A model generated the notes under the pieces. It saw only the letters and a list, made by a program, of their open reading frames with translations, was not told the DNA's origin and ran no database searches. From the NCBI GenBank assembly GCA_963383645.1, contig OY726560.1, forward strand, positions 83,734,593 to 83,798,592: DNA of 64,000 nucleotides, read 5' to 3'. Positions within the stretch are counted from its first letter, which is position 1. Each line of letters begins with the position of its first letter. The DNA is from Muscardinus avellanarius (Eukaryota > Chordata > Mammalia > Rodentia > Gliridae). The translations under genes and the position numbers were made by a program. Shown here one piece after another: positions 1,880 to 64,000 of the stretch.

Positions 1880-2106
1880 AAGTATGTGCAAACATCTGGT
1901 CAAACCCCTGGTGAAAATTCTTCAGGGTACGTGCTCAGAAGTGGAAATGCTGGGCCATGTGAAGATGCCACGTTTAATCCTCTTCAGGACCCTTCAGACT
2001 CCTTCACAGCGGCCACACCACTTTGTACTTCCACCGACAATAGACCCACAAGTGCTCAAAATTTCTTTCCAACCTCTGTTCCTCTGTGCATTTTCTTTTG
2101 TAATTT

Positions 2107-2318
2107 TTTTCTTTTTTCCTTTTTTATTTTTTTGGTGGTACTGGGGTTCCTGGAAACCCTTCTACCTCTGGACTACACTCCCAGACCTATTTTTTAACTA
2201 TATTTTTTATTTGGAAACGGTTTCTTAAGCCAGCGCAGCTGGCTTTTAACCTGCGCGATCCTCCTGTCTCCGCCTCCCAAGCGCGAGGATTACAAGTGTG
2301 TGCCACCACACCCGGCCC
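2107..2318 (-). mobile_element. Young-type B1-dID SINE with target duplication
   Basis: Reverse-oriented copy of the young subfamily: GGTGGTACTGGGGTTCCTGG at the ID end and TGCCACCACACCCGGC at the B1 end. Direct repeats TTCTTTTGTAATTT at 2,093-2,106 and 2,319-2,332 are the target-site duplication. Confidence 0.93.
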
Positions 2319-5504: not shown

Positions 5505-5521
5505 AGGATGTGACATTTCTT

Positions 5522-5736
5522 TTTTTTTCTTTTTCTTTTCTTCTTTTGGTGGTACCGGGGTTCCTGGAAACCCTTCTACCTCTGGGCTACACTCCCAGAC
5601 CTATTTTATATTTTTATTTTATTTTTATTTGGAAACAGGGTCTCTTATGCCAGCAAGGCTGGCTTCAAACCTGCGCGATCCTCCTGTCTCTGCCTCCCAA
5701 GTGTGGGGATTATAAGTGTGCGCCACCATGCCCGGC
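5522..5736 (-). mobile_element. Young-type B1-dID SINE with target duplication
   Basis: Flanked by AGGATGTGACATTTCTT at 5,505-5,521 and again from 5,737. The body has GGTGGTACCGGGGTTCCTGG at the ID end and GCGCCACCATGCCCGGC at the B1 end. Confidence 0.95.
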
Positions 5737-8594: not shown

Positions 8595-8621
8595 CAATGA
8601 TTTTTGAAATATATTTATTAA

Positions 8622-8806
8622 GCCGGGTGTGGTGGCGCACGCTTGTAATCCCTGCGCTTGGGAGGCAGAGACAGGAGGATCGCGCAGGTTTGAAGCCAGC
8701 CGCACATGCTGGCTTAGGAGACCCTCTTTCCAAATTTAAAAAATGTAAAAATAGGTCTGGGAGTGTAGCCTGGAGGTAGAAGGGCTTCCAGGAACCCCAG
8801 TACCAC

Positions 8807-8840
<34 letters not shown>
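8622..8840 (+). mobile_element. Young-type B1-dID SINE
   Basis: Starts GCCGGGTGTGGTGGCGCACG, contains CAGGAGGATCGCGCAGGTTT, then GGTCTGGGAGTGTAGCCTGG, and ends CCAGTACCACC with a tail of about 33 A. The tail runs into a TA microsatellite. Confidence 0.93.

Positions 8841-8883
<43 letters not shown>
8841..8883. repeat. (TA)n microsatellite
   Basis: About 21 TA units grown at the end of the SINE poly(A) tail. Confidence 0.97.
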
Positions 8884-20545: not shown

Positions 20546-20556
20546 TGAAAGTAATT

Positions 20557-20768
20557 CATTTTTTATTATTTATTTATTTATTTGGTGGTACTGGGGTTCC
20601 TGGAAGCCCTCTTACCTCCGGGCTATGCTCCCAGACCTATTTTATACTATTTTTAAAAATTTGGAAACAGGGTTTCTTAAGCCAGCAAGGCTGGCTTTGA
20701 ACTTGCGCGATCCTCCTGTCTCCGCCTCCCAAGCGCGGGGATTACAAGCGTGAGCCACCATGCCCGGC
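20557..20768 (-). mobile_element. Young-type B1-dID SINE with target duplication
   Basis: Flanked by TGAAAGTAATT at 20,546-20,556 and 20,769-20,779. It starts with a TTTA-rich tail, then TGGTACTGGGGTTCCTGG, and ends GAGCCACCATGCCCGGC. Confidence 0.94.
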
Positions 20769-20912
20769 TGAAAGTAATTTTTAATAAGTTTTTTTTCCAT
20801 TTATAAATTAGGATAAAGTATAACATTGTGTAATTAATGTTTAAACCTTTAAGGTGGGCTTAAAATGATTACAATAATTCCAAATAATGTTTCTCCTAAA
20901 AAATCAATCAGT

Positions 20913-23121
20913 ACTTCAACATCATCAAGGCAATATACTGCAAACCCAAAGCCAACATTATATTGAATGGGGAAAAACTGCAAGAATTTCCGCTACAGTC
21001 AGGAACAAGACAAGGATGCCCACTTTCACCTCTCCTTTTCAATATAGTCCTTGAGACTCTTGCTGCAGCAATCAGACAAGAGAAGGAAATCAAAGGAATC
21101 CACATAGGAAGAGAGGAAGTGAAATTATCCTTATTCGCAGATGACATGATCCTTTATCTGGAAGACCCAAAGAACTCAACCAAAAGACTTCTGGAGCTGA
21201 TCGACAAATTCGGCAAAGTCGCAGGTTACAAAATCAACCTAAAGAAATCAGTGGCCTTTCTTTATGCCAACAACGAATACACAATGAAGGAAACAAAAAC
21301 AACAATTCCATTCACTATAACCTCAAAACCAATAAAATACCTAGGAATAAACCTAACCCAAGATGTAAAAGACCTCTACAACAAAAACTATAAAACATTA
21401 AAGAAAGAAATAGAAGAAGACCTTGGAAGATGGAAAGATCTCCCGTGCTCATGGATAGGCAGAATAAATATCATCAAAATGGCCATTCTGCCAAAACTGA
21501 TCTATAGGTTCAATGCAATTCCCATTAAAATACCAGTGACATTCTTCAGAGACCTAGAAAAATCAATCATGAACTTCATATGGAGAAAGAAAAGACCTAG
21601 AATAGCCAAAGCAATTCTCAATAACAAGAAACACGCAGGAGGCATTACAATCCCAGACTTCAAACTATACTATAGAGCAATAGTAGTAAAAACAGCATGG
21701 TACTGGCACAAAAACAGATATACTGACCAGTGGATTAGAATAGAAGATACAGAAACAAACCCACACATCTTTAGTCAATTAATCTTTGACAAAGGGGCCA
21801 AACACATACGCTGGAGAAAAGACAGCCTTTTCAACAAGTGGTGCTGGGAGAACTGGCTAACCATTTGTAAAAAGATGAATCTAAACCCCTATATCTCACC
21901 TAACACAGGAATCAACTCAAGATGGATCAAAGACTTAGAAATTAGACCTGAGACGGTGAAGTTAGTAGAGGAGAACATAGGTTCAACACTACAACATATT
22001 GGCACAGGCAGTAACTTTCTCAACAAAACCTCCAAAGCTCAGGAAATTAAAGCAAGAATAAACAAGTGGGATAACATTAAAGTAAAAAGTTTCTTCTCAT
22101 CAAAGGAAACTATCAATAACCTAAAGAGGAAGCCTACAGAATGGGAAAGGATCTTTACCAGCCACCATTCTGATAGGGGGCTAATATCCAGAGTATACAA
22201 AGAGCTCAAAAGGCTCTACACCAACAAAACAAACAACCCAATCAAGAAATGGGCAAATGAACTAAATAGACACTTCACAAAAGAAGAGATACAAAGGGCT
22301 AATAGATACATGAAAAGATGTTCTTCATCACTGGCCATCAGGGAGATGCAAATCAAAACTACACTGAGATTCCATCTAACCCCAGTCAGAGTAGCAAGCA
22401 TAAAGAAATCAAACAACAACAAATGCTGGCGAGGATGTGGGGAAAGAGGAACTCTTTTACACTGTTGGTGGGAGTGCAAACTAGTTCAGCCACTATGGAG
22501 ATCTGTGTGGAGATTCCTAAGAAAGGTGGGAATAGATCCACCATATGAACCAGCTATACCACTCCTGGGTATCTTTCCAAAAGGGTTGAATTCAGAGAAA
22601 TACAGCAACATATGCATACCTATGTTCATAGCAGCACAATTTGTAATAGCCAAAATATGGATCCAACCCAGATCATCATCAACAGATGAATGGATAGCAA
22701 AACTGTGGGAAATACACACAATGGAATTCTATTCAGCCATAAAGAAGAACAAAATTATATCATTTGCAAGAAGATGGAAAGCCCTGGAAAGCATCATGTT
22801 AAGTGAGATCAGCCAAGCACAGAAGGAGAAGATACACATGTTTCCTCTAATATGCCCAAACTAGAAAACACAAAGGATACCAGTAGGACCCCAGATATTA
22901 GAGGGGAAATACTAGCTAAGTTTTAATGGAAAGATAGGAGAGGAGAAAGGCCGATCTTGATTAAGGAGCATCTTCACCTGAACATGTGTAAAATTATGAA
23001 TGAGACATGGTTAACCTGGCCAACCATTGGTGGGGGGGGAGAGAAAACGGGGGCGGGGGGGAGAGGGCACCAAATATAGTGTAAATGTATACTATTTATG
23101 TTCAATAAAAAAAATTGTTAA
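20913..23121 (+). mobile_element. Young 5'-truncated L1 with target duplication
   Basis: Target duplications AAAAAATCAATCAGT occur at 20,898-20,912 and from 23,122. The 5' end is truncated inside the reverse-transcriptase domain. ORF2 is open to its natural stop at 22,864, followed by a 3' UTR of about 250 bp that includes a G-rich block at 23,029-23,063 and AATAAA at 23,103. Protein sequence and 3' UTR differ clearly from the L1 lineage that dominates 31-46 kb, so at least two L1 lineages have been active here. It looks the least decayed element in the window. Confidence 0.96.
20915..22864 (+). CDS. L1 ORF2 protein, C-terminal two-thirds, uninterrupted frame
   Basis: This is the 3' part of L1 ORF2, which encodes the endonuclease/reverse transcriptase that carries out target-primed reverse transcription on nuclear DNA. 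The frame is open from 20,915 to the stop at 22,864. The first listed codon at 20,963 is TTG, so there is no real start and the open end is due to truncation. Motifs: [14 protein letters not shown] (RT motif 4/B region), then the catalytic motif [13 protein letters not shown] about 55 residues in, with both Asp present. The C-terminal Cys/His knuckle reads CWRGCG...LHCWWEC, with the expected C, C, H and C. The L1 endonuclease domain and RT motif A are missing. Roughly half of a normal 1,270-1,300 residue ORF2p remains. It cannot act alone, but the lack of any stop or frameshift in about 1.95 kb points to recent insertion. Confidence 0.92.
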
Positions 23122-35155: not shown

Positions 35156-36496
35156 ATTTATTTATTTTATTTTATTTTAAATATTTTTATTGGTACATTA
35201 TATTCATACATCATATTGGGGTAAAGAACTTGTGTGTACATACATGTACATATCACTGATTTAACCCCTACCCAATTCCCACTTCATTCCCTCCCCATCC
35301 CTCCTTCCCTTGCTTGGCTTAGTGGTTGAATTCAATATGTTTAAGTACTTTGTGTGTTTTAGAGATTTTATTCCCCCCTCCTTTTTCCTCCTTTAGGATG
35401 TCTTGCTTGCTCCTCTATAGGATTTCTTTTTTCATCTAGAGTTACTCCTATGACTCATTTCTCCGTAACTCTCACATACTAGAGAAAGCATCTGATTTTT
35501 GTTTTTTGTGACTGACTAATCTCACTTAGCATAATGTCCTCCAGTTCCATCCATTTCCCTGAAAATGATGTAATTGAGGTTTTTTATTTTTATTTTTTCT
35601 TTTGAAAAGTCCCATATTTTAAAATTTATTTTTATTGGTGCAATGTATTCATACATCATAATGGTATAAAGAAAATACTTTTGTAGACATACATGCAAAC
35701 ATCGTCCAGTTAGCCCCTACCCAATCCCCACCCCGTTCCCTCCCCATCATTCCTTCCTATGCTTGCCTTAGTGGTTGACATCTAGTTTTATAGCAATTTA
35801 TCAAATATTAACGATGATAATCTCACATAACAGTTTCAATTGTCTGATACCAAGCTTTTGATGACTTAAAGATAACATTTCAGTATTTCTTTTTGCTTTT
35901 TTTCTTACCAGAGAATATTTTTTCTTTTTTTAGGTAAAACTATCATACATTTATTTATTTATTTTTCAGAAAAAAATCTATCCTGATATGGAATATGGAC
36001 TCTAGATACCCAAAACAATCTTGAAGAAGAACAAAGCTAGATGTATGTTTTCTGATGTCAAACCATATAAAGCTACAATAATTGAAACAGTGAAGTACTG
36101 TTCTAAAGGCAGATATATAAACCATTTGAGTTGAATAAAAGCCTAGAGATAAATTCTTTCTAGTTATTTTTGACAAGGTTTCCATTAACATTTGGTGGAG
36201 GAAATACTAATCTTTTAACAAAATATTGTTGAAAAATAATAATCATATGAAAAAGAATAAAATTGGACCCTTACCTAATACATATACAAATATTAACTCA
36301 AAAGAGATAAAAGACCTAAATATAAATCTTAAGACTATAAACTTTTAGAAGAAAATCTGGGTCATTAAACCTCACAACATTGAAATTGGCAGTGATTTCT
36401 TGGATATGATTTTAATGGCATAGGCAACAGAAGGGTAAATAAACTCCCTAAAAAATAAAAAAATATTGTATATCCAAAGACAATGTAAACAGAGTT

Positions 36497-36578
36497 AAAA
36501 GTTACTGATAGAATGGGATAAAATATTTCCAAATGCTAAAAGTTACTGATAGAATGGGATAAAATATTTCCAAATGCT
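36497..36578. repeat. 41-bp tandem duplication in copy A
   Basis: Two identical 41-bp units (GTTACTGATAGAATGGGATA is the core) lie head to tail; copy B has a single unit. Confidence 0.95.
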
Positions 36579-36704
36579 ATATCTGAAGGTATACTAATGT
36601 TCCAATTAGAAATCCTAAAAATTAACAACAATAAAAGCAAACAATACCATTTAGAGATAGGTAAAAGACTAACATAAATAATGAATCTCCACAGATAACT
36701 AATC

Positions 36705-37614
36705 TTAGTTATCTGTTGGATGGAAAATCTTGTTTCTCTGGTTCTGGTTACCTATTTCTTCTTTGCAGTTAATCTCTTTGAGTATTTTCTCTAGCGCTGG
36801 TTTTGAAGACATAAATTCCTTCAGTTTCTGTTTGTCATGGAAGCTTCTTATTTCTCCATCTAATTTGATAGAAAGTTTTGCTGGGTAGGAAATTTTTGGC
36901 TGGAAGTTGTTTTCTTTCAGAGTTTGGAATATGTTACTCCAAGTCCTTCTGGCTCTCATGACTTGGTTTGGGAAGTCTGGAGTGATTCTAATTGGTTTGC
37001 CTCTGAATGTCACTTGGCCCTATGTTTTTGTTGCCTTTAAGATTCTCTGCTTGGCTTCCACATTGGTCATTTTGAAAATTATGTGGTGTGGGGATCCTCT
37101 TCTCCGATCCTGTCTAAAGGGAGTTCTGTAAGTTTCCTGGACCTGTGTATCAGCCTCTTGCTCTATGTTTGGAAAATTTTCTGCTATTACTTCCTTGAAA
37201 AGATTGTTGATCCCTTTGGTTTCACCTTCTTTTCTCTCCTCTATTCCAATTATTCTTAGGTTAGCTCTCTTAAAATGGGCCCATATTTCTTCAATATCAG
37301 TTCCTGCTGTCGGATTTTTTTTCTAGATTAGAAACTATGCGTTCATTTTTGGAATAATCATCTTCTAAGAGTGAGATTCTGTTCTCCATGTGGTCTAATC
37401 GGTTGTTTGTGCTTTGAATTGAGGCCTTTACTTCATTAATTGCATCCTTTATCTCTCTTTGGCTCTCTCTGGATTCTTTTTGAAACACCTCTATTATTTC
37501 TACAGTTATTTTCCTGATTTGTTCTTCGAGAAATCTCTGAATTTTTGTTTTATTGGGTTCTGATGTTGTGGAATTGTGGGCATTCATTGCTTTATTGTTA
37601 TTCCTCTTTCCCAT
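36705..37614 (-). pseudogene. ORF1 of chimeric copy A, one frameshift seen
   Basis: L1 ORF1 protein homolog, normally a trimeric coiled-coil RNA chaperone. N-terminal frame 37,614-37,297 opens MGKRNNNKAMNAHN and contains the coiled coil (EEQIRKITVEIIEVFQKE, then ENRISLLEDDYSKNERIV). A T-run near 37,313-37,323 shifts the frame after about 100 codons. The C-terminal frame 37,013-36,705 has the CTD landmarks ITPDFPNQVMRARRTWSN and YPAKLSIKLDGEIRSFHD, and ends FHPTDN-stop. About 300 codons in total, the usual ORF1 length. Little decayed compared with L1-Q ORF1. Confidence 0.88.
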
Positions 37615-39230
37615 GATTTTGGAAGTTTGTGCCTTCTCTGGTTTCTTCCCTGGGTCACTACGACTTCACTTAAAGTGCTCTGGATCTCGAGTCTGTGGTA
37701 TCTCAGTCACCAGTACCCCTTTATTGGTTTGTATCACAGAGTGTCAGACCCTGGGAGTCAATCGGGGCTGCTTTAGACCATTGGGGGGGGGTGCCAGATT
37801 GGGCGTTCTCCTATGGTATGATATCTCTGCCACCCCCACTGGGTCAAGTCCCTGGGAATACAGTACTGGGATTTCTCCTCTAGGGGCCACAATTTGACTC
37901 ACTGTTGTTGAGTGCGCAGATGGAGCTGTCATGGACTTGGTGAATTCGTTGCTGCTGCCACAGGTAACAATATGACACCACTGCCACGCCCTCAGCCATG
38001 AGGCTGGCGTATTTCTTTTCTGTTTTTGAGCTCCGCTCTGAGTCCCTGAAGGGTGTGCTGAGCCCAGCCTCTGGGAGCTTTAGACGCTTCTTGCACCGAG
38101 AAATCTGCCAAATTCCTCCCTGCTGATCCGCAGTGGCTCACCTTGGCTCGCTGTCTGCCGCTCCTCTCTGGAGCCTGGTGGGCTTTTGAGTGCATTGGTC
38201 TGGTGCCATCTGGTGAGCTCGCTGCTGCTGCCGGCAGTAAGGCGCTACTGCCACGTCCTCAGCCATGAGGCCCGCATATCTCCTCTGTGGCTCTGAGCTC
38301 CGTTATGAGTTCCCTTCGTCTCTGGAGCCTGGTGCTGCAAGGGAAAGTGGCGCCTGCCGCTTCGCACCGTGGTTTTGGCTGCAGCACTGCAGTCTGGTTT
38401 CTGGTGTCTCATTTTTCCAGCCCTCTTTTTCTCTGTCCCTTGAAATTACATTTTTTGTTTCTCTGCTGATGGTGTTTTCTGGCTATGAAAGGTGCTGATT
38501 TTGTGGTAATAGAGATTGGTTGTTAGCGGGGCTCGTAAGCCCCGCTTTTTTCCATCACCATCTTCCCAGAACTAATTGAGGTTTTTTAAATGGCTGAGTA
38601 AAATTCCATTGTGTACATATCCCACAATTTTGTAATCCATTCATCTGTTGATAGACATCTTGGCTGGTTCCCTAGTTTGGCTATGGTGAATTGTGCAGCT
38701 ATGAACACAGATACACATGCATTAGTTTGGTGGTTTGGTTTTCTATCTTTTGGGAAAATACCCAGAAGTGGTATTGCTGGATCAAATGGTAGATTTGTTT
38801 CCATTCTTCTGAGGATTCTCCATACTGTTTTCCAAAGTGGTTGCACTAATTTGCAATCCCACCAACAATGTTTTAGAGTTCCCACTTCTCCACATCCTCA
38901 CCAGCATCTGTTGTTGTTTGTGTTTTGAATGATTGCCATTCTAGTTGGAGTTAGGTGAAATCTCAGGGTAGTTTTGATTTGCCAGTGATGTTGAGCATTT
39001 TTTCATGCATTTATTGGCATTTGAATTTCTTCTTTCGTGAAGTGTCTATTTAGTTCACTTGCTCATTTTGTTATTGGATGCTTTGCTTTCTTTTTTTCTT
39101 CTTTTCTTCTTTCTTTTTTTATTGGTGCATTATATTCATACATCATTTTGTGGTAAAAAACTTGTGTGTACAAACATGTACACATCACTGATTTAACCCC
39201 TACCCAATTCCCACCCCATTTTCTCCTCAT

Positions 39231-42200
39231 TTGGCCATTTGAATTTCTTCTTTTGTGAGGGGTCTATTTAGTTCGTTTGCCCATTTTGTTATTGGATGCT
39301 TTGTTTTCTTAGTGTTGGGTTTCTTGAGTTCTCTGTATATTCTAGATATTAGTCCTCTATCAGAGGTAAAGTCCTCTATCAGAGGTAATTGGCAAAAATC
39401 TCCCATTGTGTTGGCTCTCGATTGAGGTTCTTGATAGATTCCTTTGCTCTTCAATTTCATGCAATCCCACATATTGATTTCCATTTTAATTTGTTGTGCC
39501 TTTGGGGTCTTGTTGAGAAAGTATTTATCTGTGCCTATATGTTGCAGTGTTGGACCTATGCCCTCTTCAAGGAGCTTCAAAGTCTCTGGTTTGATTTCCA
39601 AGTCTTTGATCGATCTTGAGTTGAATTTTGTACAGGGTGAGAAAGTGGGATTAATTTCTAATTTTATGCATATGGTTATCCAGTTTTGACAACACCATTT
39701 GTTGAATAGGCTATCTTTTTCCAGTGTATGTTTTTTTCGCTTTGTCAAAAATCAATTGGCTGAAAGTGTTTGGACTTGTTTCTGGATCTTCTATTCTGTT
39801 TCACTGGTCTATGTATCTGTTTTTTTGCCAGTATCATGCTGTTTTTAATACAATGGCTTTGTAGTATAGTTTAAAGTCAGGTATTGTGATTCCTCCTGCA
39901 TGGTTTTTGTTGCTGAGAACTACCTTGGCTATTGTGGGATTTTTGTTATTCCAGATAAATTTAAGGACTGTTTTTTCTAAGTCTGTGAGGAATGATCTTG
40001 GTAGTTTAATGGGCATTGCATTAAATCTGTAGATCACTTTTGGGAGGATGGCCATTTTAATGATATTATTCTGCCAGTCCATGAACATGGAAGATCCTTC
40101 CATCTTCTAGATCTTCTTCGATTTCTTTTTTTAGTGTTTTATAATTTTCTTTGTAGAGATCTTTTACCTTCTTGGTCAAGTTTATTCCTAAGTATTTTAT
40201 TTTTTTGTGGGAGATCCTGAGTGGAAGTGTTTTCTGAATTTCTTTTTCAGTGGATTTATGGTTGGTGTACAGGAAAGCTTCTGATTTTTTTTTTTTTTTT
40301 GGTGGTACTGGGGTTCCTGGAAGCCCTTCTACCTCCGGGCTACACTCCCAGACCTATTTTTTACATTTTCATTTTGGAAACAGGGTCTCCTAAACCAGCG
40401 TGTGTGGCTGGCTTCGAACCTACGCGATCCTCCTGTCTCTGCCTCCCAAGCGCTGGGATCACAAGCGTGCCCCACCACGCCGGGCAAAGCTTCTGATTTT
40501 TTAAGATTGATTTTGTATACATATATTTTGCTGAATTTGTTGATCAGTTCTATAAGCCCTTTGCTTGAGTTTGTTGGGTTTTCTAAATATAGTATCATGT
40601 TATCTGCAAATAGTGAAAGTTTGAGTTCTTCTTTTCCTATTTGTACTCTTTTGATTTCCTTTTCTTGCCTTATTGCTCCAGCTAGAGTCTCTAGTACTAT
40701 ATTGGAGAGAAGTGTTGTTAATGGACATCCTTGTCTCATTCCTGTTTTTAGAGGGGATTCTTGAAGTTTTTCCCAATTTAATATAATGTTGGAAGTGGGC
40801 TTATTGTAGATTGCCTTAATAATGTTGAGATATGTCTCTTCTATTCCAGTTCTCTGCAGAATTTTTTTTTTATCATAAATAGATGTTGAATTTTATCAAA
40901 TGTTTTTTCAGCATCTATTGAAACGATCATGTGATTTTTGTCTTTGATTCTGTTTATATGATGAAATATATGGATTGATTATCGTATATTGAACCAGCCT
41001 TGCATCCCTGAAATGAACCCTACCTGGTCATGGTGTATGATTTTCTTGACGTGGTTTTGAATGCATGTTGCTATTATTTTGTTTAATAGTTTTGCATCTA
41101 AGTTCATCAGAGATATAGGCCTGTAGTTTTCCTTCCTTGAACTGTCTTTATTCGGTTTGGGTATTAGTGTGATGTTGGCTTCATAGAATGTATTTGGGAG
41201 AATCCCAGTTTTTCTATTTCGTGAAATAGTTTGAGTAGTATTGGAGTTAACTCTCCTATAAAGGTTTTATAGAATTCACTTGGGAAACCATCTGGTCCTT
41301 GGCTTTTGTTTGATGGTAAGCTCTTTATTGCTGTTTCAATCTTTTTGATTGTTATTGGTTGGTTTAAGTGTTCTATAACTTCTTGACTCACTTTAGGAAG
41401 ATTGTATTTATCTAGGATGTTGTCGATTTCCCCCAGATTTTCCATTTTGTTGGAGTATAGTTTTTCAAAGTGGTTTCTGATAATCCTCTGGATTTCTACA
41501 CTGTCAGTAGTAATTTCTCCTTTTTCATCCCTTATCTTCATAATTTGGGTTGATTCTCTCTATTTTTTAGTTAGGTTGGCTAGTAATTTATCTATCTTGT
41601 TGATTATTTCAAGAAACCAGCTTTTGGTTTTGTTGATTTTTTTGTATTGTTTTTTAATTCTCTATTTTGTTATTTGCTGCTCTAATTTTAATAAATTCCT
41701 GTCTTCTCCTGGCTTTGGGGTTCAATTATTCCTGCTTTTCAAGGGTTTTGAGGTGTGTTGTTAGGTTATTTATTTGAAGATTTTCTGTTTTTCTTATGTG
41801 AGCACTCAGTGCTATAAATTTTCCTCTTAATACTGCCTTCACAGTGTGCCAGAGGTTTTGATTTGTTGTATCTTTATTTTCATTTGTTTCTAGAATTTTC
41901 TTGATTCCATCACTTAAATCTTCTATGATCCATTCTTATTCAGAAGTGTGGTGTTCAGTCTCCACATGTTCATGTTGTTTCTCTGGGTCTTCTTATAGTT
42001 GATTTCTAGTTTCATTCCATTATGGTCTGAAATGACAGAGGGAAGTATGTAACATTTTTAAAATTTTCTAGTGCTCATTTGTGTCCCAGGATATGATCTA
42101 TTTTGGAGAAGGTTCGGTGAGCAGCTGAGTAAAATGTAAACTCCGCAGTAGTTGGGTGAAATATTCTATATGTGTCCAACAGGTCCATTTAGTTAATGGT

Positions 42201-42690
42201 GTTCTTTAGTTCTGAGGCATCTTTACTGACCCTTTGGAACATGAGTCTAGTGTTGTGAGAGGTGCGCTAAAGTCTCCCAGTATTATTGTGTTGGGATTTA
42301 TGTGTGACCTCTTTTCACAAAGAGTTTGATTTATGAAAGTAGCTGCACCCATGTGTGGGGAATAGATGTTGATTATTGTTATTTCCTCTTGCTGGATTAT
42401 TCCTTTTACCAGTAAAATATGACCTTCTTTGTCTCTTCTAATAAGTTTTGGTTTGAAGTCTAACTTTTCTGATATCATAGTTGATACTCCTGCTTGTCTT
42501 CAAGTACCATTAGAATGGATTACCTTGCTCCAGCCCTTTACCTTGAATTTGTTTCTATCTTTACTTGTAAGGTGTGTTTCTTATAAGCAGCAATGGTGGA
42601 CTCTGGTTTTTAATCCATTTTGTCATTTATGTCTTTTTATTGGGGAGTTGAGACTATTTACATTCAGTGTGATTATAGAGAGAAATTTTT
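39231..42690 (-). pseudogene. L1-N ORF2, broken and C-terminally deleted
   Basis: Endonuclease pieces at 42,478-42,206 (ITIINIYSPHMGAATF, NTIILGDFSAPLTTLD). RT pieces at 41,541-41,164 ([18 protein letters not shown]) and 40,739-40,500, which contain the catalytic box as [15 protein letters not shown]: the second Asp of the FADD box is Asn, so the RT would be inactive even if the frame were open. Pieces at 40,103-39,834 and 39,748-39,231 cover thumb and connection. Several frameshifts, one SINE and the loss of the Cys/His end make it a pseudogene. Confidence 0.88.
40291..40485 (-). mobile_element. Level-4 young B1-dID SINE inside L1-N
   Basis: Target duplication AAAGCTTCTGATTTTTT at 40,274-40,290 and 40,486-40,502. 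Body GGTGGTACTGGGGTTCCTGG to CCCACCACGCCGGGC. It is the innermost and so youngest insertion on its branch of the cluster. Confidence 0.96.
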
Positions 42691-42747
42691 AATTCCTAAC
42701 ATGTTAAGATTTTATTTCTGTTTGAGAAACTGTTTATTCTTCTTTGC

Positions 42748-43657
42748 TTAGTTGTCTGCTGGATGGAAATCTTGTTTCTTTGGTTTTGGCATGTATTACC
42801 TATTTCTTCTTTGCAGTTAATCTCCTTGAGCATTTTCTCTAGCGCTGGTTTTGAAGACATAAATTCCTTCAGTTGCTGTTTGTCATGGAAGCTTCTTATT
42901 TCCCCATCTAATTTGAATGATAGTTTTTCTGGTTAGGAAATTTTTGGCTGGAAGTTGTTTTCTTTTGAATTTGAAATATGTTACTCCATGCCCTTCTGGC
43001 TTTCATGACTTGGTTTGGGAAGTTTGGAGTGATCCTAATTGGTTTGCCTCTGAATGTCACTTGGACTTTTGTTTTTGTTGCCTTTCAGATTCTCTCCCTG
43101 GTTTCCACATTAGTCATTCTGACAATTATGCGGCATGGAGATCCTCTTCTCTGATCCTGTCTAAAGGGAGTTCTATAAGTTTCCTGGACCTGTGTATTGA
43201 CCTCTTGTGCTATGTTTGAAAAATTTTCTGCTATTACTTCCTTGAAGAGATTATTGATCCCTTTGGTTTCACCTTCTTTTCCCTCCTCTATTCCTATTAT
43301 TCTTAGGTTAACTCTCTTAAAATGGGCCCATATTTCTTCAATGTCAGATTACTGCTGTCAGATTTTTTTCTAAATTAGAAACTATGCATTCATTTTTGGA
43401 GTGATCATCTTCTAGAAGTGAGATTCTATTCTCCTTGTTGTCTAATCAGTTGTTTATACTTTGAAATGAGGCCTTTACTTCAATAATTGCATCCTTTATC
43501 TCTTTTTGACTCTCTCTGAATTCTTTTCTAAAGACCTCTATTATTTCTAAAGTTATTTTCCTGATTTGATCTTCTAGAGATCTCTGAATTTCTGTTATCA
43601 GGTTCTGATGTTGTGGGGTTGTGGGCATTAATTCTCCCTTGGTATTCCTCTTCCCAT
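42748..43657 (-). pseudogene. L1-N ORF1, decayed
   Basis: Starts ATG at 43,657 (GGGAAGAGGAATACC follows) and ends at TAA 42,748-42,750 after the same HPAD/TDN-type ending as in other copies. The coiled-coil text EDQIRKITLEIIEVFRKEF is seen at 43,570-43,510. Frameshifts and stops break it. Confidence 0.82.
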
Positions 43658-45548
43658 GATTTTGGAAGTTTGTTCCTTCTCTGTGTTCTTTCCTGGGTCA
43701 CTACGACTTCACTTAGGGTGTTCTGGATCTTGAGTCTGGTATCTGAATCACCCCTATTCCTTTGCTGGGTTGTATCGCAAGGTCAGACCCAGGGAGTTAA
43801 TTGAGTTTGCTTTAGACCTTGGGGGTTGCCATGTTGGACGTTCTCCCTTGGGGAGTTTTAACTATGGTGTGATACCTCTTTCACCGCCACTCCCCCACTG
43901 GTTTTGACTGCAAAAATCTCTGATCCAGGGAGACTATCTGCACAAGTCCCTGGGAGTGCAGAACTGGGATTTCTCCTCTAAGAGCTACAATTTGACTCAT
44001 GATTGTTGATTGCGCTGATGGAGCTGTAGTGGACTCAGTCAATTCACTACTGCCGCCGCTGGCAATATGGCTTCATTGTCACAACCTTGGCTGTGAAGCT
44101 GGCATATTTATTCTCTGGTTTTGAGCTCCGCTCTGAGTCCCTGCAGGATGTGCTGAGACCGGCTCCTGGGAGCTTTAGATGCTCCCTGCACTGAAAAAAC
44201 TGCCAAATTCCATCCGGCTGTTCTGCAGCCGCTCACCTCGGCCCGCTGTCTGCCCCTCGTCTTTGGAGCCTGGTGGCTTGTTGAGTGCGCTGGTCTGTAG
44301 CCATCTGTTGAATTTGCTGCTGCATCTGGCAGTAAGGCACTGCTGCCGCGTCCTCGACCATGAGGCTGGAATATTTCTTCTCTAGTTTTGAGCTCCACTC
44401 TGAGGGCCTGCATGGTGTGCTCAGCTTGTTGTCCATCCCTCCTCTCTGTGGCCTGGTTGGTTGTTGAGTGCATTGGTCCGGAGCCGTCTGGTGAACTCGC
44501 TGCTACCGCTGGCAATAAGGTGCTGCTGTTGCATCCTCGGCCGTGAGGCCAGAGTATCTCCTCTCTGCTTTTGAGCTCCATTCTGAGTCCCCCTCCTTTC
44601 TGGAGCCTGGTGCTGCAAGGGAAGATGATGCCTGCAGGGCTCCGTGCTGCGGCTCTGGCTGCAGCACTGCAGGCTGGTTTCTTTCTGGTGTCTCATTTTT
44701 CCAGCCCTCTTTTTCTCTGTTCCTTGTATTTACAGTTTTTGTTTCTCTGCTAATGGTGATTTCTAGCTATGAAAGGTGCTGATTTTGTGGTAGTAGAGAT
44801 CGATTGTTAGCAGGACTCATAAGCGCCGCTTCTCTCCATTGCCATCTTCCCGGAAGTCTAAGATTATTTTTTTAAATGTAAAAACCACATCAGTTACAGT
44901 GAAGTGTCTATTTAGTTCACTTGCCCATTTTGTTATTGGATGCTTTGTTTTCTTAGTGTTTAGTTTCTTGAGTTTTCTGTATATTCTAGATATTAATCCT
45001 CTATCAGAGGTGTAGGTGGCAAAAATCTTCTCCCATTCTGTTGGCTCTCGATTGAGGTTCTTGACTGTTTTCTTTGCTGAACAGAAGCTCTTCAATTTCA
45101 TGCAATCCCAGGTATTGATTCTCCTTTTAATATTTTATGGCTTTGGGGTCTTGTTGAGAAAGTGTTTATCTGTGCCTATGTGTTGCAGTGTTGGACATAT
45201 ACCCTCTTCAAGGAGCTTCAAGGTCTCTGGTTTGATTTCTAAGTCTTCGTTCCATCTTGCATTGACTATTGTACAGTGTGAGAAAGTGGGATTAATTTCC
45301 AATTTTCTGCATATGGTTTTCCAGTTTTGCCAACACCATTTGTTGAACAGGCTATCTTTTTTCCAGTGTATGTTTTTGTCGCCTTTGTCAAAAATCAATT
45401 GGCTGAAAATGTGTGGATTTGTTTCTGGGTGTTCTATTCTGCTCCATTGGTCTATGTATCTGTTTTTTTTGTCAGTACCATGCTGTTTGTATTAAAATGG
45501 CTTTGTAGTATAGTGTAAAGTCAAGTATTGTGATTCCTCCTGCATGGT

Positions 45549-50796: not shown

Positions 50797-50799
<3 letters not shown>

Positions 50800-50827
<28 letters not shown>

Positions 50828-51020
50828 TTTTTTATTTTTTGGTGGTACTGGGGTTCCTGGAAGCCCTTCTACCTACGGGCTACACTCCCAGACCTATTTT
50901 TACATTTTTATTTGGAAACAGGGTCTCCTAAGCCAGCGCGCGGCTGGCTTCGAACCTGCGCGATCCTCCTGTCTCTGCCTCCCAAGAGCGGGATTACAAG
51001 CGTGCGCCACCACGCCCGGC
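50800..51020 (-). mobile_element. Young-type B1-dID SINE with target duplication
   Basis: Near-identical flanks AAGATCTTATGTTTTA (50,784-50,799) and AGAATCTCATGTTTTA (51,022-51,037). (TTTA)n tail, GGTGGTACTGGGGTTCCTGG and GCGCCACCACGCCCGGC. Confidence 0.94.
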
Positions 51021-51037
51021 TAGAATCTCATGTTTTA

Positions 51038-52642: not shown

Positions 52643-53677
52643 AGTTTGTTTTAAAAGCAAACTATCACTTTGAACTTCATTATTATGTTTAATTAAAATA
52701 TACCAAAAAATAAATGCAAATTTAATATCGCAATCATAAAATGGATAACAAGTATCTTTCACTATGTAAATAATGCAAACGTAAAAAATGCATAAGTGAA
52801 AATGAGTATTTTAATTCAATTTTCATCTGTTACAATTGCCTGTTATATATATACAGAAACAGCTTGATCTTTCTTTGTTAGAAAACTGAGATGAGAAGAT
52901 GGCGACCGAGAAAAGTGGGGCTTAAGAGCCCCACTAACAACTAATCTCCATTACCGCAAAATCAGTGCCTTGCATAGCCAGAAAACACCATCACCAGAGG
53001 AAAAAAAAATCACCAGGCTCCAGAGAGGAAGGGGACTCAGAACAAAGCTCAGAGCCACAGAGGAGATACACAGGCCTCATGCCCAAGGACACGGCAGCAG
53101 TACCTTACTGCCGGCGGCAGCAGCGAGTTCACCGGATGGCTACAGCAGGCCGATGTGAGCTGCTGCGGAACAGCCAGGCGGGATTTTTTGGCACAGGGAG
53201 CATTTAAGCTCCCAGTGGCTGAGCTCAGCACACGCTGCAGGGACTCAGAGTGGAGCTCAAAAACAGAGAACAAATACGCCATCCTCATGGCCAAGGATGT
53301 GGCAGCGGCGCCATATTGCCACTGGCGGCAGCAGCAGCAAATTCACCGAGTTCACTACAGCTCGATCTGCATATTCAACAACAGTCAGTCAAATTGCAGG
53401 CCCCAGAGGAGAAATCCCAGTACTGCACTCCCAGGGACTTGACCCAGTGGGGGAGTGGCGGTGGCAGAGATATCACACCATAGGAGAATGCCCAACCTGG
53501 CACCCCCCCATAGTCTAAGGCAGCCTCTATCGACTCCCTGGGTCTGAAACTCTGTGATACAACCCAGAAAAGGAGTAGTGGGGTCTGAGATACCACAGAC
53601 TTGAGATCCAGAGCACCTTAAATGAAGTCATAGTGACCCAAGGGAAGAACTCAGAGAAGGCACAAACTTCCAAAATC

Positions 53678-54590
53678 ATGGGAAAGAGGAATAACAACGG
53701 AGCAATGAATGCCCACAATTCCACAACATCAGAACCAAATAAAACAGAAATTCAGAGATTTCTCGAAGAACAAATCAGGAAAATAACTGTAGAAATAATA
53801 GAGGTGTTTCAGAAAGAATTCAGAGAGAGCCAAAAAGAGATAAAAGATGCAAATAATGAAGTAAAGGCCTCAATTCAAAGTAAAAACAACTGATTAGACC
53901 ACATGGAGAATAGAATCTCGCTCTTAGAAGATGAGCAATACAAAAATGAACGCATAGTTTCTAATCTAGAAAAAAATATCCGACAGCAGGAATCTGACAT
54001 TGAAGAACTATGGGCCCATTTTAAGAGAGATAACCTTAGAATAATTGGAATAGAGGAGGGAAAAGAAGGTGAAACCAAAGGGATCAACAATCTCTTCAAG
54101 GAAGTAATAGCAGAAAATTTTCCAAACATAGAGCAAGAGGCTGATACACAGGTCCAGGAAACTTATAGAACTCCCTTTAGACAGGAGAAGAGGATCCCCA
54201 CGACACATAATTGTCAAAATGACCACTGTGGAAGCCAAGCAGAGAATCTTAAAGACAACAAAAACAAAGGGCCAAGTGACATTCAGAGAAAAACCAATTA
54301 GAATCACTCCAGACTTCCCAAACCAAGTCATGAGAGCCAGAAGGGCTTGGAGTAACATATTCCAAACTCTGAAAGAAAACAACTTCCAGCCAAAAATTTC
54401 CTACCCAGCAAAACTTTCTATCAAATTAGATGGAGAAATAAGAAGCTTCCATGACAAACAGCACCTCAAGGAATTTATGTCTTCAAAACCAGCGCTAGAG
54501 AAAATACTCAAAGAGATTAACTACAAAGAAGAAATAGGTAACACACACCACAACCAGAGAAACAAGATTTTCCATCCAACAGATAACTAA
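53678..54590 (+). pseudogene. ORF1 of chimeric copy B, one stop and one frameshift
   Basis: L1 ORF1 RNA-chaperone homolog. ATG at 53,678 starts MGKRNNNGAMNAHN. The coiled-coil text IQRFLEEQIRKITVEIIEV follows; a TGA at 53,891 interrupts codon 72. The frame resumes with MENRISLLEDEQYKNERIV, shifts between about 54,190 and 54,270, and ends as ITPDFPNQVMRARRAWSN...KEINYKEEIG...FHPTDN-stop at 54,590. About 300 codons, full ORF1 length. Only two lesions, so decay is modest. Confidence 0.9.
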
Positions 54591-55325
54591 GATTAGTTAT
54601 CTGTGGAGATTCATTACTTATGTTAGTCTTTTACATATCTCTAAATTGTATTGTTTGCTTTTATTGTTGTTAATTTTTAGGAATTCTAGTTGGAATATTA
54701 ATATACCTTCAGATATAGCACTTAGAAATATTTTATCCCATTCAATCAGTAACTTTTAACTCTGTTTACATTGTCTTTGGATATACAATATTTTTTTTAG
54801 GGAGTTTGTATACTCTTCTGTTGCCTGTGCCATTGAAATCATATCCAAGAAATCACTGCCAATTTCAATGTTGTGAGGTTTTATGACCCAGATTTTCTCC
54901 TAAAAGTTTATAGTCTTAAGATTTATATTTAGGTCTTTTATCTATTTTGAGTTAATACTTGTATATGGGATTAGGTAAGGGTCCAATTTTATTCTTTTCC
55001 ATGTAATTATTATTTTTCAAAAATATTTAGTTAAAAGATTATTATTTCCACCACCAAATGTTCGTGGAAACCTTGTCAAAAATAACTTGACAATATATGA
55101 AAGAATTTATCTCTAGGCTTTTATTTAACTCCAATGGTTTATATATCTGCCTTTAGAACAGTACTACACTGTTTCAGTTATTGTAGCTTTATATGGTTTG
55201 AAATCAGAAAATATATATCTTCTAGCTTTGTTCTTTTTTGAGTTCGTTTTGGGTATCTAGAGTCCATATTCTATATTAGGATAGATTTTTTCTGAAAAAT
55301 AAATATATAAATATATGATAGTTTC

Positions 55326-55518
55326 TTTTCTTTCTTTTTTTTTTTGGTGGTACTGGGGTTCCTGGAAGCCCTTCTACCTCTGGGCTACGCTCCCAGACCT
55401 ATTTTATATTTTTGAAACAGGGTCTCTTACACCAGCGCGGCTGGCTTCGAACCTGCGCGATCTTCCTGTCTCTGCCTCCCAAGCACGGGGATTACAAGCG
55501 TGCGCCACCACGCCCGGC
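55326..55518 (-). mobile_element. Young B1-dID SINE inside chimeric copy B
   Basis: TATGATAGTTTC at 55,314-55,325 and 55,519-55,530 flank it. Absent from copy A at the matching point. Confidence 0.96.
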
Positions 55519-55875
55519 TATGATAGTTTCATCTAAAAAAAAAAAGAAAATAAAACAATATTCTCTGGTAAGAAAGAAAGCAAAAAGAAATATTGAAATG
55601 TTATCTTTAAATCAACAAAAGCTTGGTATCAGACAAATGAAACTGTTATGTGAGATTATCATTTTTAGTTTTGGATAAATTGCTATAATACTAGATGTCA
55701 ACCACTAAGCCAAGCATGGGAAGGAGGGATGGGGAGGGAATGGGGTGGGGATCGGGTGGGGGCTGACTGGGCGATGTGTGCATGTATGTCTACAAAAGTT
55801 TGTATCCCACTATGATGTATGAATACAGTGCACCAATAAAAAATTAAAAAAAAAAAGAAAACTGAGATGAAAAAG

Positions 55876-56301
55876 TGATTTTTTTTTTTGGTGGTACTTG
55901 GAATGAAGCCCAGATGGATTCTACCTTAATATTACACCCCCAGCCCGATTTTATTTCTTTTATTTTTTTCCTTTGGTGGTACTGGGGGTTTCTGGAAACC
56001 CTTGTACCTCTGAGCTACACTCCCAGACCTATTTTTATATTTTTTTATTTGGAAACAGGGTCTCTTAAGCCAGCGCGGCTGGCTTTCAACTGGCTCAAAC
56101 CTCCTGTCTCTGCCTCCCAAGCACAGGGGTTACAAACGTGTGCCACCATCTATTTTATTTCTTATTTGGAAAAAAAGTCTCACTAGATTCATGAGAGTCT
56201 CAATACTTGCTGAGGCTCACTTTCCTAGAACCTGCAATCCTTCTGTCTCAGCCTACCAAGTACTGGGATTATAGGAATGTGTCACCACATCTGGCATGAT
56301 T
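55876..56301 (-). mobile_element. Old B1-dID SINE split by a younger SINE
   Basis: Outer SINE: 55,876-55,959 (GGTGGTACTTGGAATGAAGC, ID side) and 56,152-56,301 (B1 side, ending GTGTCACCACATCTGGCATG). The inner SINE separates the two monomers. Confidence 0.88.
55960..56151 (-). mobile_element. Young-type SINE nested in the old SINE
   Basis: ATTTTATTTCTT at 55,948-55,959 and 56,152-56,163 is the target duplication. Body GGTGGTACTGGGGGTTTCTG to GTGTGCCACCATC; the last few B1 bases (CCGGC) are missing. Confidence 0.92.
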
Positions 56302-60774: not shown

Positions 60775-61097
60775 TCACTGTAAGTGATGTGGATTTTACA
60801 TTAAAAATAAAATCTTAGACTTCCGGGAAGATGGAGATGGAGAAAAGCGGCGCTCACGAGTCCCGCTAACAATCAATCTCTATCACCACAAAACCAGTGC
60901 CTTTCAGAGCCAGAAAACACCATCAGCAAAGAAATATAAATTGTAAATACAAGGGACAGAGAAAAAGAGGGCTGGAAAAATGAGACACCAGAAGGAAACC
61001 AGCCCACAGTGTCGTGGCCAGAGCTGCGGTGTGGAGCCACGTGAACGCCATCTTCCCTTGCAGCACCAGGCACCAGAGAGGAGGGAGACTCAGAAGA

Positions 61098-61700
61098 GAG
61101 CTCAAATCTAGAGAGGAGGTACGCCGGCCTCATGACCAAGGACGCAGCAGCAGTGCCTTACTGCCGGCGGCAGCGGCAAGTTCACTGGATGGCTCCAGAC
61201 CAACACACTCAACCAGCCACCAGGCGCCAGAGAGGAGGGGTGGACAGAGAGCAGAGGTGAGCAGCTGCTGAACAGCTGGGCAGCAGTCAGCAGATTTTTT
61301 GGTGTAAGGAGCGTCTAAAGCTCCCAAGGGTCGGGATCAGCACACCCTGCAGGGACTCAGAGTGGAGCTCAGAACCAGAGAAGAAATACGCCACCCTCAC
61401 GGCTGAGGACGTGGCAGCAGCGCCTTACTGCTGGCAGCAGCGGTGAGTTCACCGGATGGCTCCAGACCAATGCACTCAACCAGCCACCAGGCTCCAAAGA
61501 GGAGGGGTGGACAGCGAGCTGAGGTGAGCAGCTGCTGAACAGCCAGGTAGCAGTCAGCAGTTTTTTCGATGCAAGGAGTGTCTAAAGCTCCCAAGGGCTG
61601 GGCTCAGCACACCTTGCAAGGACTCAGAGCAGAGCTCAAAACAAGAGAAGAAATAAACCAGCCTCATGACCTAGGGCATGGCAGCAGTGCTATATTGCCA
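61098..61700 (+). promoter_or_regulatory. Tandem 267-bp L1 5' UTR monomers (putative promoter units)
   Basis: GAGCTCAAA/GAGCTCAGA starts occur at 61,098, 61,365 and 61,632, exactly 267 bp apart. Each full unit has GCAGCAG...CTTACTG, TTCAC.GGATGGCTCCAGACC, CTCAACCAGCCACCAGG and CTAAAGCTCCCAAGGG in the same order. Tandem 5' UTR monomers act as promoter units in mouse and rat L1; that function is inferred here, not seen. Confidence 0.85.
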
Positions 61701-62106
61701 GCGGTGGCAGCAGCGCATTCACTGGGTCCACTACAGCTCCATCAGCACACTCAACAACCGTGAGTCAAATTGCAGCCCCTAGAGGAGAAATCCGAGTACT
61801 GCACTCCCAGAGACTTGCGCAGATAGTTTCCCTGGGTCGGAGATTTTGACAGTCCAACCCAGTGGAGGAGTGGCGGTGGCAGATATATCACACCATAGTC
61901 ACAACCCCCCGCGGGAGAATGCCCAACCTGGCACACCCCATGGTTTAAAGCAGCCTCAATTTACACTCTGGGTCTGAGACTTTGTGATACAACCCAGTAA
62001 AGGAGTAGTGGTGACTCAGATACCACAAACATGAGATCCATAGCACCTTAAGTGAAGTCGTAGTGACCCAGGGAAGAACCCATAGAAGGCACAAACTTCC
62101 AAAATC

Positions 62107-62530
62107 ATGGGAAAGAGAAATAACAATGGAGCAATGAATGCCCACAACCCCACAACATCAGAACCTGATAACAGAAACCCAGAGATCTCTGGAAGATCAA
62201 ATCAGGAAAATAACTGTAGAAATAATACAGGACTTTCAAAAAGAATTCAGAGAGAGTAAAAAAGATATAAAGGATGCAATCATTGATATAAAGCCTCAAT
62301 TCCAAGTATAAACAATAGTTTAGAACACATGGAAAATAGAATCTCACTTCTAGAAGATGATCACAACAAAAATGAACACATAGTTTCTAATTTAGAAAAA
62401 AAAATCCATCAGCAGGAATCTGACATTGACGAAATATGGGCCCATTTTAAGAGAGCTAACCTAAGAATAATTGGAATAGAGGAGGGAAAAGAAGGTGAAA
62501 CCAAAGAGATCAATAATCTCTTCAAGGAAG
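62107..62530 (+). pseudogene. L1-R ORF1, N-terminal half fused to ORF2
   Basis: ATG at 62,107 (MGKRNNNGAMNAHN) followed by frameshifts in the coiled coil, then an open piece from 62,329 (MENRISLLEDDHNKNEHIV...INNLFKE). At 62,530 the sequence leaves ORF1 and enters ORF2 RT text. RNA-binding and C-terminal domains are lost. Confidence 0.88.
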
Positions 62531-64000
62531 ATTATTATCGACCACTTCCTATATAAATACAACCTTCCTAAACTGAGTCAAGAAGATATAGAACACTTAA
62601 ACCAACCAGTAATAATCAAAGAGATTTAAACAGCAATAAAGATCTTACCATCAAACAAAAGCCAAGGACCAGATGGTTTCCCAAGTGAATTCTATAAAAC
62701 CTTTATAGAAGAGCTAATCCCAATACTACTCAAACTATTTTACAAAATAGAAAAAAACGGGACTCTTCCAAATACATTTGATGAAGCCAATATCACACTA
62801 ATACCCAAACTGAATAAAGACAGTTCAAGGAAGGAAAGCTACAGGCCTATATCTCTGATGAACTTGGATGCAAAACTATTAAACAAAATACTAGCAACAT
62901 GCATTCAAAACCACGTCAAGAAAATCATACACCATGACCAGGTAGGGTTCATCCCAGGGATGCAAGGCTGGTTCAATATACGAAAATCAATCCATGTAAT
63001 TCATCATATAAACAGAATCAAAGACAAAAATCACATGATCATTTCAATAGACACTGAAAAAGCATTTGATAAAATTCAACATCCATTTATGATAAAAACA
63101 CTGCAGAGAATTGGAATCGAAGGAACATATCTCAACATTATTAAGGCAATCTACAATAAGCCCATTTCCAGCATCATATTAATTGGGGAAAAACTTCAGG
63201 AATTCCCCTAACAACTGGAATGAGACAAAGATGTCAATTATCACCACTTCTCTTCGATATAGTACTAGAGACTGTAGCCAGAGCAATAGGCAAGAAAAGG
63301 AAATTAGAGGAGTACAAATAGGAAAAGAAGAACTCAAACTTTCACTATTTGCAGATGACATAATACTATATTTAGAAAACCCCAAAACTCAACCAAAAGA
63401 CTTATAGCACTGATTAAGAAATTCAGCAAAATATATGGATACAAAATTAATTTTAAAAAAATCAGAAGCTTTCCCATACACCAACCATAAATCCACTGAA
63501 AAAGAAAATAAGAAAACACTTCCACTCAGGATACCCCACAAAAATATAAAATACTTAGGAATAAACTTGACCAAGGAAGTAAAAGACCTCTACAAAGAAA
63601 ATCATAAAACACTGAAAAAAGAAATTGAAGAAGATCTTAGAAGATGGAAGGATCCTCCATGTTCATGGATTGGCAGAATGAATAATCATTAAAATGGCCA
63701 TCCTTCCAAAAGTGATCTACAGATTTAATGCAATGCCCATTAAACTACCAAGATCATTCCTCACAGACATAGAAAACTCTGTCCTTAAATTTATCTGGAA
63801 TAACAAAAAGCCCAGAATAGCCAAGGTAGTTCTCAGCAACAAAAACCATGCAGGAGGAATCACAATACCCGACTTTAAACAATACTACAAAGCCACTGTA
63901 ATAAAAACAGCATGGAACTGGCAAAAAACTGATACATAGACCAATGGATCAGAATAGAAAACCCAGAAAAAAGTCCACCCACTTTCAGCCAATTGATTTT
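62531..64000 (+). pseudogene. L1-R ORF2 reverse-transcriptase region, broken, partial
   Basis: Begins at the DKYNLPKLSQEDIEHLN region. Frames: 62,858-63,211 with RT motif A as [16 protein letters not shown] (catalytic Asp present); 63,183-63,407 with [15 protein letters not shown] (both Asp present); 63,435-63,692; 63,694-63,939 ([18 protein letters not shown]). Three or more frameshifts. The whole endonuclease domain is missing because of the ORF1-ORF2 deletion. Confidence 0.88.

What the first reader, a model, noticed from the sequence alone, without database searches (positions are those of the whole stretch)
52895..55855. Chimeric half-L1 family: ORF1 kept, ORF2 replaced by a reversed ancient L1 segment
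Seen: L1 5' UTR, ORF1, about 900 bp of an old L1 ORF2 in reverse orientation, then an L1 3' UTR and poly(A), all inside one 15-bp target duplication (AGAAAACTGAGATGA at 52,880 and 55,856). Copy A at 35,586-38,572 has the same joins. Known: HAL1 elements keep ORF1 and lack RT. Inference: this is a HAL1-like non-autonomous family born from a rearranged L1, carrying an antisense L1 insert and moved in trans by ORF2p. The antisense segment could pair with L1 transcripts.
Basis: partly seen in the sequence, partly recalled or inferred. Interest (0 to 1): 0.88.

Follow-up and report, generated by a model that had tools for sequence, protein, structure and literature searches.

The report
Dormouse half-L1 with reversed L1 tail
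The hazel dormouse genome holds about 20,000 copies of the signature join of a shortened L1 jumping gene that keeps only L1's first gene and carries a backwards piece of an ancient L1, and intact L1s read in the same genome carry that backwards piece in their tails too, probably because short and full elements exchanged ends.

Summary
Copies A and B are separately inserted members of one family: L1 5' UTR, ORF1, a 918-bp block (about 740 bp of it antisense ancient L1 ORF2), L1 3' UTR and poly(A), each inside its own target duplication. The ORF1-stop/antisense join occurs 19,797 times at up to 3 mismatches, control 0. ORF1 is open over 305 codons in 4 of 41 copies. Two points change the story. 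(1) An older type P keeps about 240 bp of ORF2 before a longer block; its join occurs 1,118 times. (2) Two intact autonomous L1s carry the downstream part of the block, same orientation, in their 3' UTR; that join occurs 781 times. So the block is not special to the half-L1, and pairing with L1 RNA is not supported. The longest block occurs no more often than the P join (1,118), so the live L1 likely took its 3' end from the half-L1; the opposite order is not excluded.

The parts
52880..52894 (+). Copy B: upstream target-site duplication AGAAAACTGAGATGA
   Evidence: exact pair with 55856-55870, only two places in the window
52895..53677 (+). Copy B: L1 5' UTR (slightly short of the 5' end ACTTCCGGGAAGATGG seen in many other copies)
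   Evidence: alignment to copy A and to fetched copies
53678..54590 (+). Copy B: ORF1 remains, stop TAA 54588-54590; broken in this copy, 305 codons where open
   Evidence: Pfam PF02994 and PF17490 in open copies
54591..54592 (+). Copy B: join 1, ORF1 stop to antisense block (CTAAG|ATTAGTTATCTG)
54592..55330 (-). Copy B: antisense ancient L1 ORF2 segment
   Evidence: nhmmer E 6e-15, tblastn E 2e-14 to the older L1 at 20901-22950
55315..55530 (-). Copy B: later SINE insertion inside the block, TSD ATGATAGTTTC at 55315 and 55520
   Evidence: absent from copy A; the 39 other scored copies match on either side of it only
55531..55697 (+). Copy B: rest of a 178-bp stretch (55520-55697) of the block, origin unknown
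   Evidence: not L1-like above shuffles; present in an intact L1's 3' UTR
55698..55855 (+). Copy B: L1 3' UTR end with G-rich tract, CACCAATAAA and A-rich tail
   Evidence: 83% to old L1 3' UTR 35329-35170
55856..55870 (+). Copy B: downstream target-site duplication
38573..38588 (-). Copy A: target-site duplication TAATTGAGGTTTTTTA (5' side of the element)
36705..38572 (-). Copy A: 5' UTR and ORF1 (ATG at 37614, stop at 36705-36707; frame broken)
35777..36703 (+). Copy A: block, old-L1 sense on the plus strand; 36222-36509 is 95.2% to an intact L1's 3' UTR
35587..35776 (-). Copy A: L1 3' UTR and A-rich tail
35571..35586 (-). Copy A: target-site duplication (3' side)
20901..22950 (+). Older L1 ORF2 stretch used as the sense reference for the antisense block
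39091..44900 (-). Ordinary L1 copy C, ORF1 running into ORF2

Best explanation
This is a high-copy half-L1 (HAL1-type) retrotransposon family of the hazel dormouse, about 2.8 kb long, that keeps the L1 5' UTR and ORF1, lacks ORF2, and ends in an antisense block of an ancient L1 followed by an L1 3' UTR and poly(A), and it is likely copied in trans by the ORF2 protein of intact L1s in the same genome. Shown: two structural types. Type P has ORF1, about 240 bp of ORF2 and a longer antisense block. The main type joins the ORF1 stop codon directly to a shorter part of the same block. Shown: two intact autonomous L1s carry the downstream part of this block, in the same orientation, in their own 3' UTR, and that L1 join is repeated 781 times. 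Inferred: the block first joined L1 sequence in a P-type half-L1. The main type then arose by loss of the ORF2 remnant with exchange of 5' sequence with L1. A live L1 lineage then took its present 3' end from such a half-L1, probably by template switching during reverse transcription. Inferred: the block acts as 3' UTR, not as an antisense regulator.
For: Join-1 29-mer: 675 exact, 18,347 within 1 mismatch of the variant-tolerant form, 19,797 within 3, controls 0. Structure: 36 of 39 fetched copies start within 14 bases of B's 5' end (not L011, L021, L024) and 36 of 39 run through join 2 (not L025, L038, L044); 2 of 2 copies taken by position in the list are full length. TSDs: 24 of 36 testable copies score 10 or more against 3.0% of mismatched flank pairs. 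ORF1: open over 305 codons in 4 of 41 copies, with both L1 ORF1 domains; P-majority against main-type majority 24 N / 23 S, dN/dS 0.30, p 6e-5. Helper: about 70 of 150 scored RT matches have a 1,278-codon open frame (hand count). Type P: 40 of 40 scored matches, the query's own locus included, span its join; 10 of 10 held loci leave ORF2 at C-coordinates 2381-2386. Live L1: block in the 3' UTR of two intact loci; the L1 join occurs 781 times, exact at the expected distance in 28 of 59 intact ORF2 loci. Direction: the 5'-most block stretch and the P join both total 1,118; the ML tree places the L1 blocks beside half-L1 copy A (support 100 and 99).
Against: The tree in which the L1 blocks lie outside all main-type half-L1s is only 3.8 log units worse and is not rejected (p-AU 0.40). 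Rooting on P is an assumption. Only two L1 3' UTRs were read, one of them in part. The equal totals of 1,118 are not a site-by-site match, and the two patterns overlap by 16 bases: of 39 exact block-end sites listed on C1, 22 coincide with an exact P join and 17 do not; whether those 17 have an inexact P join could not be checked. The 39 copies are the best matches to B, so their low divergence (about 2%) is biased; the two copies taken by position are only 90-91% identical to B, gaps counted. Inside the main type selection on ORF1 is not shown: N/S relative to neutral is 0.97 for private variants, 0.84 in 2 copies, 0.74 in 3-5 and 0.40 (8 N, 7 S, p 0.07) in 6 or more. Part of the P-to-main difference may have accrued in L1, since ORF1 looks mosaic, and L1 copies against the same majorities give dN/dS 0.36-0.63. 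Mobilisation in trans was not observed.
Confidence: 0.65

Rival explanations
1. The block entered the 3' UTR of an autonomous L1 first; types P and main then arose from that L1 lineage by separate ORF2 deletions of different extent, and the live L1 later trimmed its block. The half-L1s would then be plain deletion derivatives.
For: Intact L1s do carry the block in the 3' UTR. A tree with the L1 block outside all main-type half-L1s is not rejected (p-AU 0.40). ORF1 of the main type shares 14 derived sites with L1 in its first 522 nt. On C1, 17 of 39 exact block-end sites have no exact P join.
Against: In total the 5'-most stretch of the block occurs no more often than the P join (1,118 and 1,118), so an L1 with the long block left no excess of copies. 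The L1 join (781, at least 100 of them exact) is rarer than the half-L1 join. A and B share join 1, yet the L1 block groups with A.
Confidence: 0.3
2. The antisense block is a regulator: its RNA pairs with L1 transcripts and suppresses or stabilises them.
For: The block is antisense to ancient L1 ORF2.
Against: No exact word longer than 12 nt is shared with five ORF2 pieces in the window. Intact L1s carry the block in the same orientation.
Confidence: 0.03
3. A and B are copies of one locus by segmental duplication, or an assembly artefact.
For: Both lie in the same 64-kb window.
Against: Opposite strands and different TSDs. Among 41 copies 46 pairs share some flank match of 150 bp or more, one pair in both flanks, and that one is scattered 69-79% repeats. 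The 40 copies scored lie on 19 contigs.
Confidence: 0.01

Closest known systems
HAL1 (half-L1) retrotransposons
   Same: ORF1 only, poly(A), TSDs, dependence on L1 RT/EN (PMC5322556 passage); several independent origins in mammals (PMC5753468 passage); long-kept ORF1 in guinea pig HAL1 (PMC3627910 passage).
   Different: Carries an antisense ancient-L1 block that intact L1s also carry; an older form with an ORF2 remnant persists; 19,797 join sites against nearly 2,100 HAL1 copies quoted for human (PMC5322556 passage).
Mosaic L1 families of mouse (Tf, Gf, A) formed by recombination, including at the ORF2-3' UTR junction
   Same: Exchange of 5' or 3' modules between L1 lineages (PMC3600994 passages).
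   Different: Here one partner is an ORF2-less half-L1, and the exchanged 3' module contains reversed L1 sequence.
SVA and LAVA composite elements
   Same: Non-autonomous composites mobilised by L1 proteins in a cell assay (PMC7353768, start of abstract in the listing).
   Different: From recall, they are not L1-derived half elements; this element keeps L1 5' UTR, ORF1 and 3' UTR.

Membership tests
HAL1 | Derived from L1 and encodes L1 ORF1 protein | tested here: met
   PF02994 E 6.1e-27 and PF17490 E 3.5e-21 in an open copy, both also in a second; 305 codons open in 4 of 41 copies
HAL1 | Lacks ORF2 (endonuclease and RT) | tested here: met
   Join directly after the ORF1 stop in A, B and fetched copies; type P keeps only about 240 bp of ORF2
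HAL1 | Poly(A) tail and target-site duplications | tested here: met
   24 of 36 testable copies against 3.0% of mismatched pairs; A and B exact
HAL1 | Multi-copy family, not a single rearranged L1 | tested here: met
   19,797 join sites within 3 mismatches, control 0
HAL1 | Mobilised in trans by L1 ORF2p | not testable with these tools
   Only indirect: many open 1,278-codon ORF2 frames
HAL1 | Descent from a named HAL1 family of Repbase | not tested
   No repeat library on hand; HAL1s are reported to have arisen several times
Autonomous L1 | ORF2 present | tested here: not met

The most novel reading that the evidence does not exclude
A parasite of L1 rebuilt its host element: a half-L1 captured a reversed ancient-L1 fragment, spread to about 20,000 copies, and donated that fragment as the 3' UTR of the autonomous L1 lineage that is intact in the genome today, so sequence flowed from the non-autonomous to the autonomous element.
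Probability: 0.46. Interest if true: 0.74.

Novelty: new variant of a known kind. Interest (0 to 1): 0.55.

Why it matters
HAL1 elements are usually treated as dead-end derivatives of L1 (my reading of the field). A genome that holds an older form with an ORF2 remnant, an abundant main form, and intact L1s sharing the same unusual 3' module lets one test whether non-autonomous derivatives feed modules back to their autonomous partner, and whether ORF1 is kept in cis for trans mobilisation. The reversed block is a clean, recognisable marker for following that exchange.

Tried and rejected
Palindrome at join 1: A and B have a perfect 11-bp inverted repeat (CAGATAACTAA/TTAGTTATCTG), which first looked like a clue to the origin. 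Most sites listed read CAGACAACTAAGATTGGTTATCTG, and P pieces read ATTGGT at that place in two of three, so the perfect palindrome looks secondary.

One-step replacement of ORF2: dropped after type P was found. Simple ORF2 deletion from the live L1 as read: dropped because that L1 has less of the block than either half-L1 type.

Tree shrew as host: considered from the SINE type, dropped when assembly size and chromosome lengths matched the hazel dormouse.

PDB search with the insert translation: nothing. The donor locus of the block was not looked for. The count of block-free older L1 3' UTRs did not complete, nor the site check of the P join with a free joint.

Literature: Bao and Jurka 2010 is not held and is cited only through other papers. 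Searches for HAL1, half-L1 and L1 mosaic terms and for Muscardinus with LINE list no title or abstract start describing this family; subscription papers and Repbase are untested.

Full report
WHAT IS THERE. Copy B lies at 52895-55855 between exact 15-bp duplications; copy A lies on the minus strand at 35587-38572 between a different exact 16-bp duplication. Both run L1 5' UTR, ORF1, a block of about 0.9 kb, L1 3' UTR, A-rich tail. Ordinary L1s C and E in the same window continue from ORF1 into ORF2; A and B leave them at the ORF1 stop codon. The larger part of the block (54592-55330 in B) matches, in reverse, the 3' part of ORF2 of an older L1 in the window (nhmmer E 6e-15; tblastn E 2e-14 with the opposite strand at 8e-14). 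With loose gaps it beats 20 shuffles for 3 of 5 window ORF2 pieces; the remaining 178 bp (55520-55697) do not match L1 above shuffles. B carries a later SINE in the block.

HOST. The window is C4:83734593-83798592 of a 2.497-Gb assembly in 104 contigs. The nearest named ORF1 relatives are from squirrels.

A REAL FAMILY. A search with 54540-55700 gave 5,074 first-look candidates; 40 were scored and 40 of 40, B included, span the ORF1/antisense join. That query stops 3 bases past the second join, so join 2 was judged on fetched DNA: 39 further copies. 36 of 39 begin within 14 bases of B's 5' end; L011, L021 and L024 do not. 36 of 39 run through the second join; L025, L038 and L044 do not. Many begin at ACTTCCGGGAAGATGG. 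Of 36 copies with both ends testable (34 fetched plus A and B; L011, L019, L021, L024, L030 dropped) 24 have a duplication score of 10 or more against 3.0% of mismatched flank pairs. No two of 41 copies share colinear flanks (46 pairs share some repeat match). The join-1 29-mer occurs 675 times exactly, 19,797 times within 3 mismatches, and 18,347 times within 1 mismatch when the common variants are allowed; the reversed control is 0 each time. Two copies taken from the top of that list are both full length and 90-91% identical to B with gaps counted. If all 19,797 were full length they would make up about 2% of the genome; that is an upper bound. The 38 aligned copies of the main type (B and 37 fetched) differ by about 2% (non-CpG median) from their majority in ORF1 and the antisense part; they were the best matches to B, so this is biased towards young copies.

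ORF1. An open frame of 305 codons survives in 4 of 41 copies and holds the L1 RNA-binding and C-terminal domains (PF02994, PF17490; two copies scanned). Its stop codon is the last L1-sense codon before the join. N/S relative to neutral is 0.97 for private variants (263 N, 79 S), 0.84 in 2 copies, 0.74 in 3-5 and 0.40 in 6 or more (8 N, 7 S, p 0.07), a trend only. Between the majority ORF1 of type P (10 copies) and of the main type there are 24 N and 23 S changes, dN/dS 0.30 (p 6e-5); window L1s against the two majorities give 0.36-0.63. ORF1 thus stayed coding on the line joining the two masters, although part of that line may have been L1.

TYPE P. Beside copy L022 an older element runs from ORF1 through about 240 bp of ORF2 and then switches to a longer version of the antisense block; pieces beside L018 and L039 hold the ORF2 remnant and the same switch at the same base. 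A search with that join gave 2,328 candidates, 40 of 40 scored (the query's own locus included) spanning it. In 10 of 10 held loci ORF2 ends at the same place (C-coordinates 2381-2386) and the block follows; 9 of 10 have ORF1 sequence upstream, L051 does not. The P join occurs 1,118 times within 3 mismatches. P copies are 2.4-4.9% from their ORF1 majority. L056 and L060 lack a further part of the block.

THE LIVE L1. A scan for reverse transcriptase gave 26,731 candidates; of 150 scored, about 70 have a 1,278-codon open frame (my count). The 3' UTR of one such locus (C8:66389047) holds the old L1 3' UTR start and then, from B-coordinate 1851 on, the same block in the same orientation (90%). 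Part of the 3' UTR of a second intact locus, picked because it lacked the exact join, has it with one mismatch and is 97% identical to the first, 95.2% to copy A and 92.4% to copy B. The L1 join occurs 781 times; it lies at the expected distance, exact, in 28 of 59 intact loci tested on nine chromosomes. The second join of the half-L1 (24,748 places) is therefore shared with L1 and does not count half-L1s alone.

WHICH CAME FIRST. The maximum-likelihood tree of the block (55 sequences), rooted on P, puts the L1 block beside half-L1 copy A with support 100, 99 with a second L1 added. A tree with L1 outside all main-type half-L1s is not rejected (p-AU 0.40). ORF1 of the main type looks mosaic: polarised by L1 copy E, its first 522 nt share 14 derived sites with L1 and 3 with P, the rest 0 with L1 and 5 with P (Fisher p 0.002 at a breakpoint chosen after looking). 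I read this as exchange of ends between half-L1 and L1, with the block moving from half-L1 to L1 as the more likely direction.

HOW IT LIKELY WORKS. Inferred from established L1 biology: transcription from the 5' UTR, ORF1 protein made by the element itself, reverse transcription and insertion by ORF2 protein of the live L1 acting on the poly(A) end. The target duplications, A-rich tails and open ORF2 frames are shown; mobilisation in trans is not. The antisense block is best seen as 3' UTR sequence. It shares no exact word over 12 nt with five ORF2 pieces of the window, so long pairing with those L1 RNAs is not expected.

WHAT IS KNOWN. HAL1 elements are ORF1-only L1 derivatives with poly(A) and TSDs (PMC5322556 passage), of several independent origins (PMC5753468 passage), with long-kept ORF1 in guinea pig (PMC3627910 passage) and activity in rat (PMC8535693 passage). 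Mouse L1 families exchange modules, also at the ORF2-3' UTR junction (PMC3600994 passages). This family meets the tested HAL1 features; what is new is the reversed block, the surviving intermediate and the sharing of the block with intact L1s.

Noticed in passing
window 61000-64000: L1 copy D has ORF1 running straight into the RT part of ORF2 at about 62530, a large internal deletion of another kind.
   Followed up: no
window 61087-61442 and 61354-61715: The L1 5' UTR carries imperfect tandem units, differing between copies A and B.
   Followed up: no
window 2104-2316, 5516-5736, 8621-8850, 20554-20794, 40285-40500, 50798-51021, 55331-55519, 55949-56148: A SINE of about 200 bp with a 7SL/B1-like left part and a tRNA-like right part is frequent here (type named from recall).
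   Followed up: partly
L056 and L060: Two type-P copies share loss of the block between B-coordinates 2211 and 2624, possibly a further subfamily.
   Followed up: no
window 1-576: Tandem repeat with a spacing of about 100 bp at the window start.
   Followed up: no
L039, L022: A main-type half-L1 sits directly inside an older type-P element at L039; at L022 it lies between two parts of one, with further sequence in between.
   Followed up: partly
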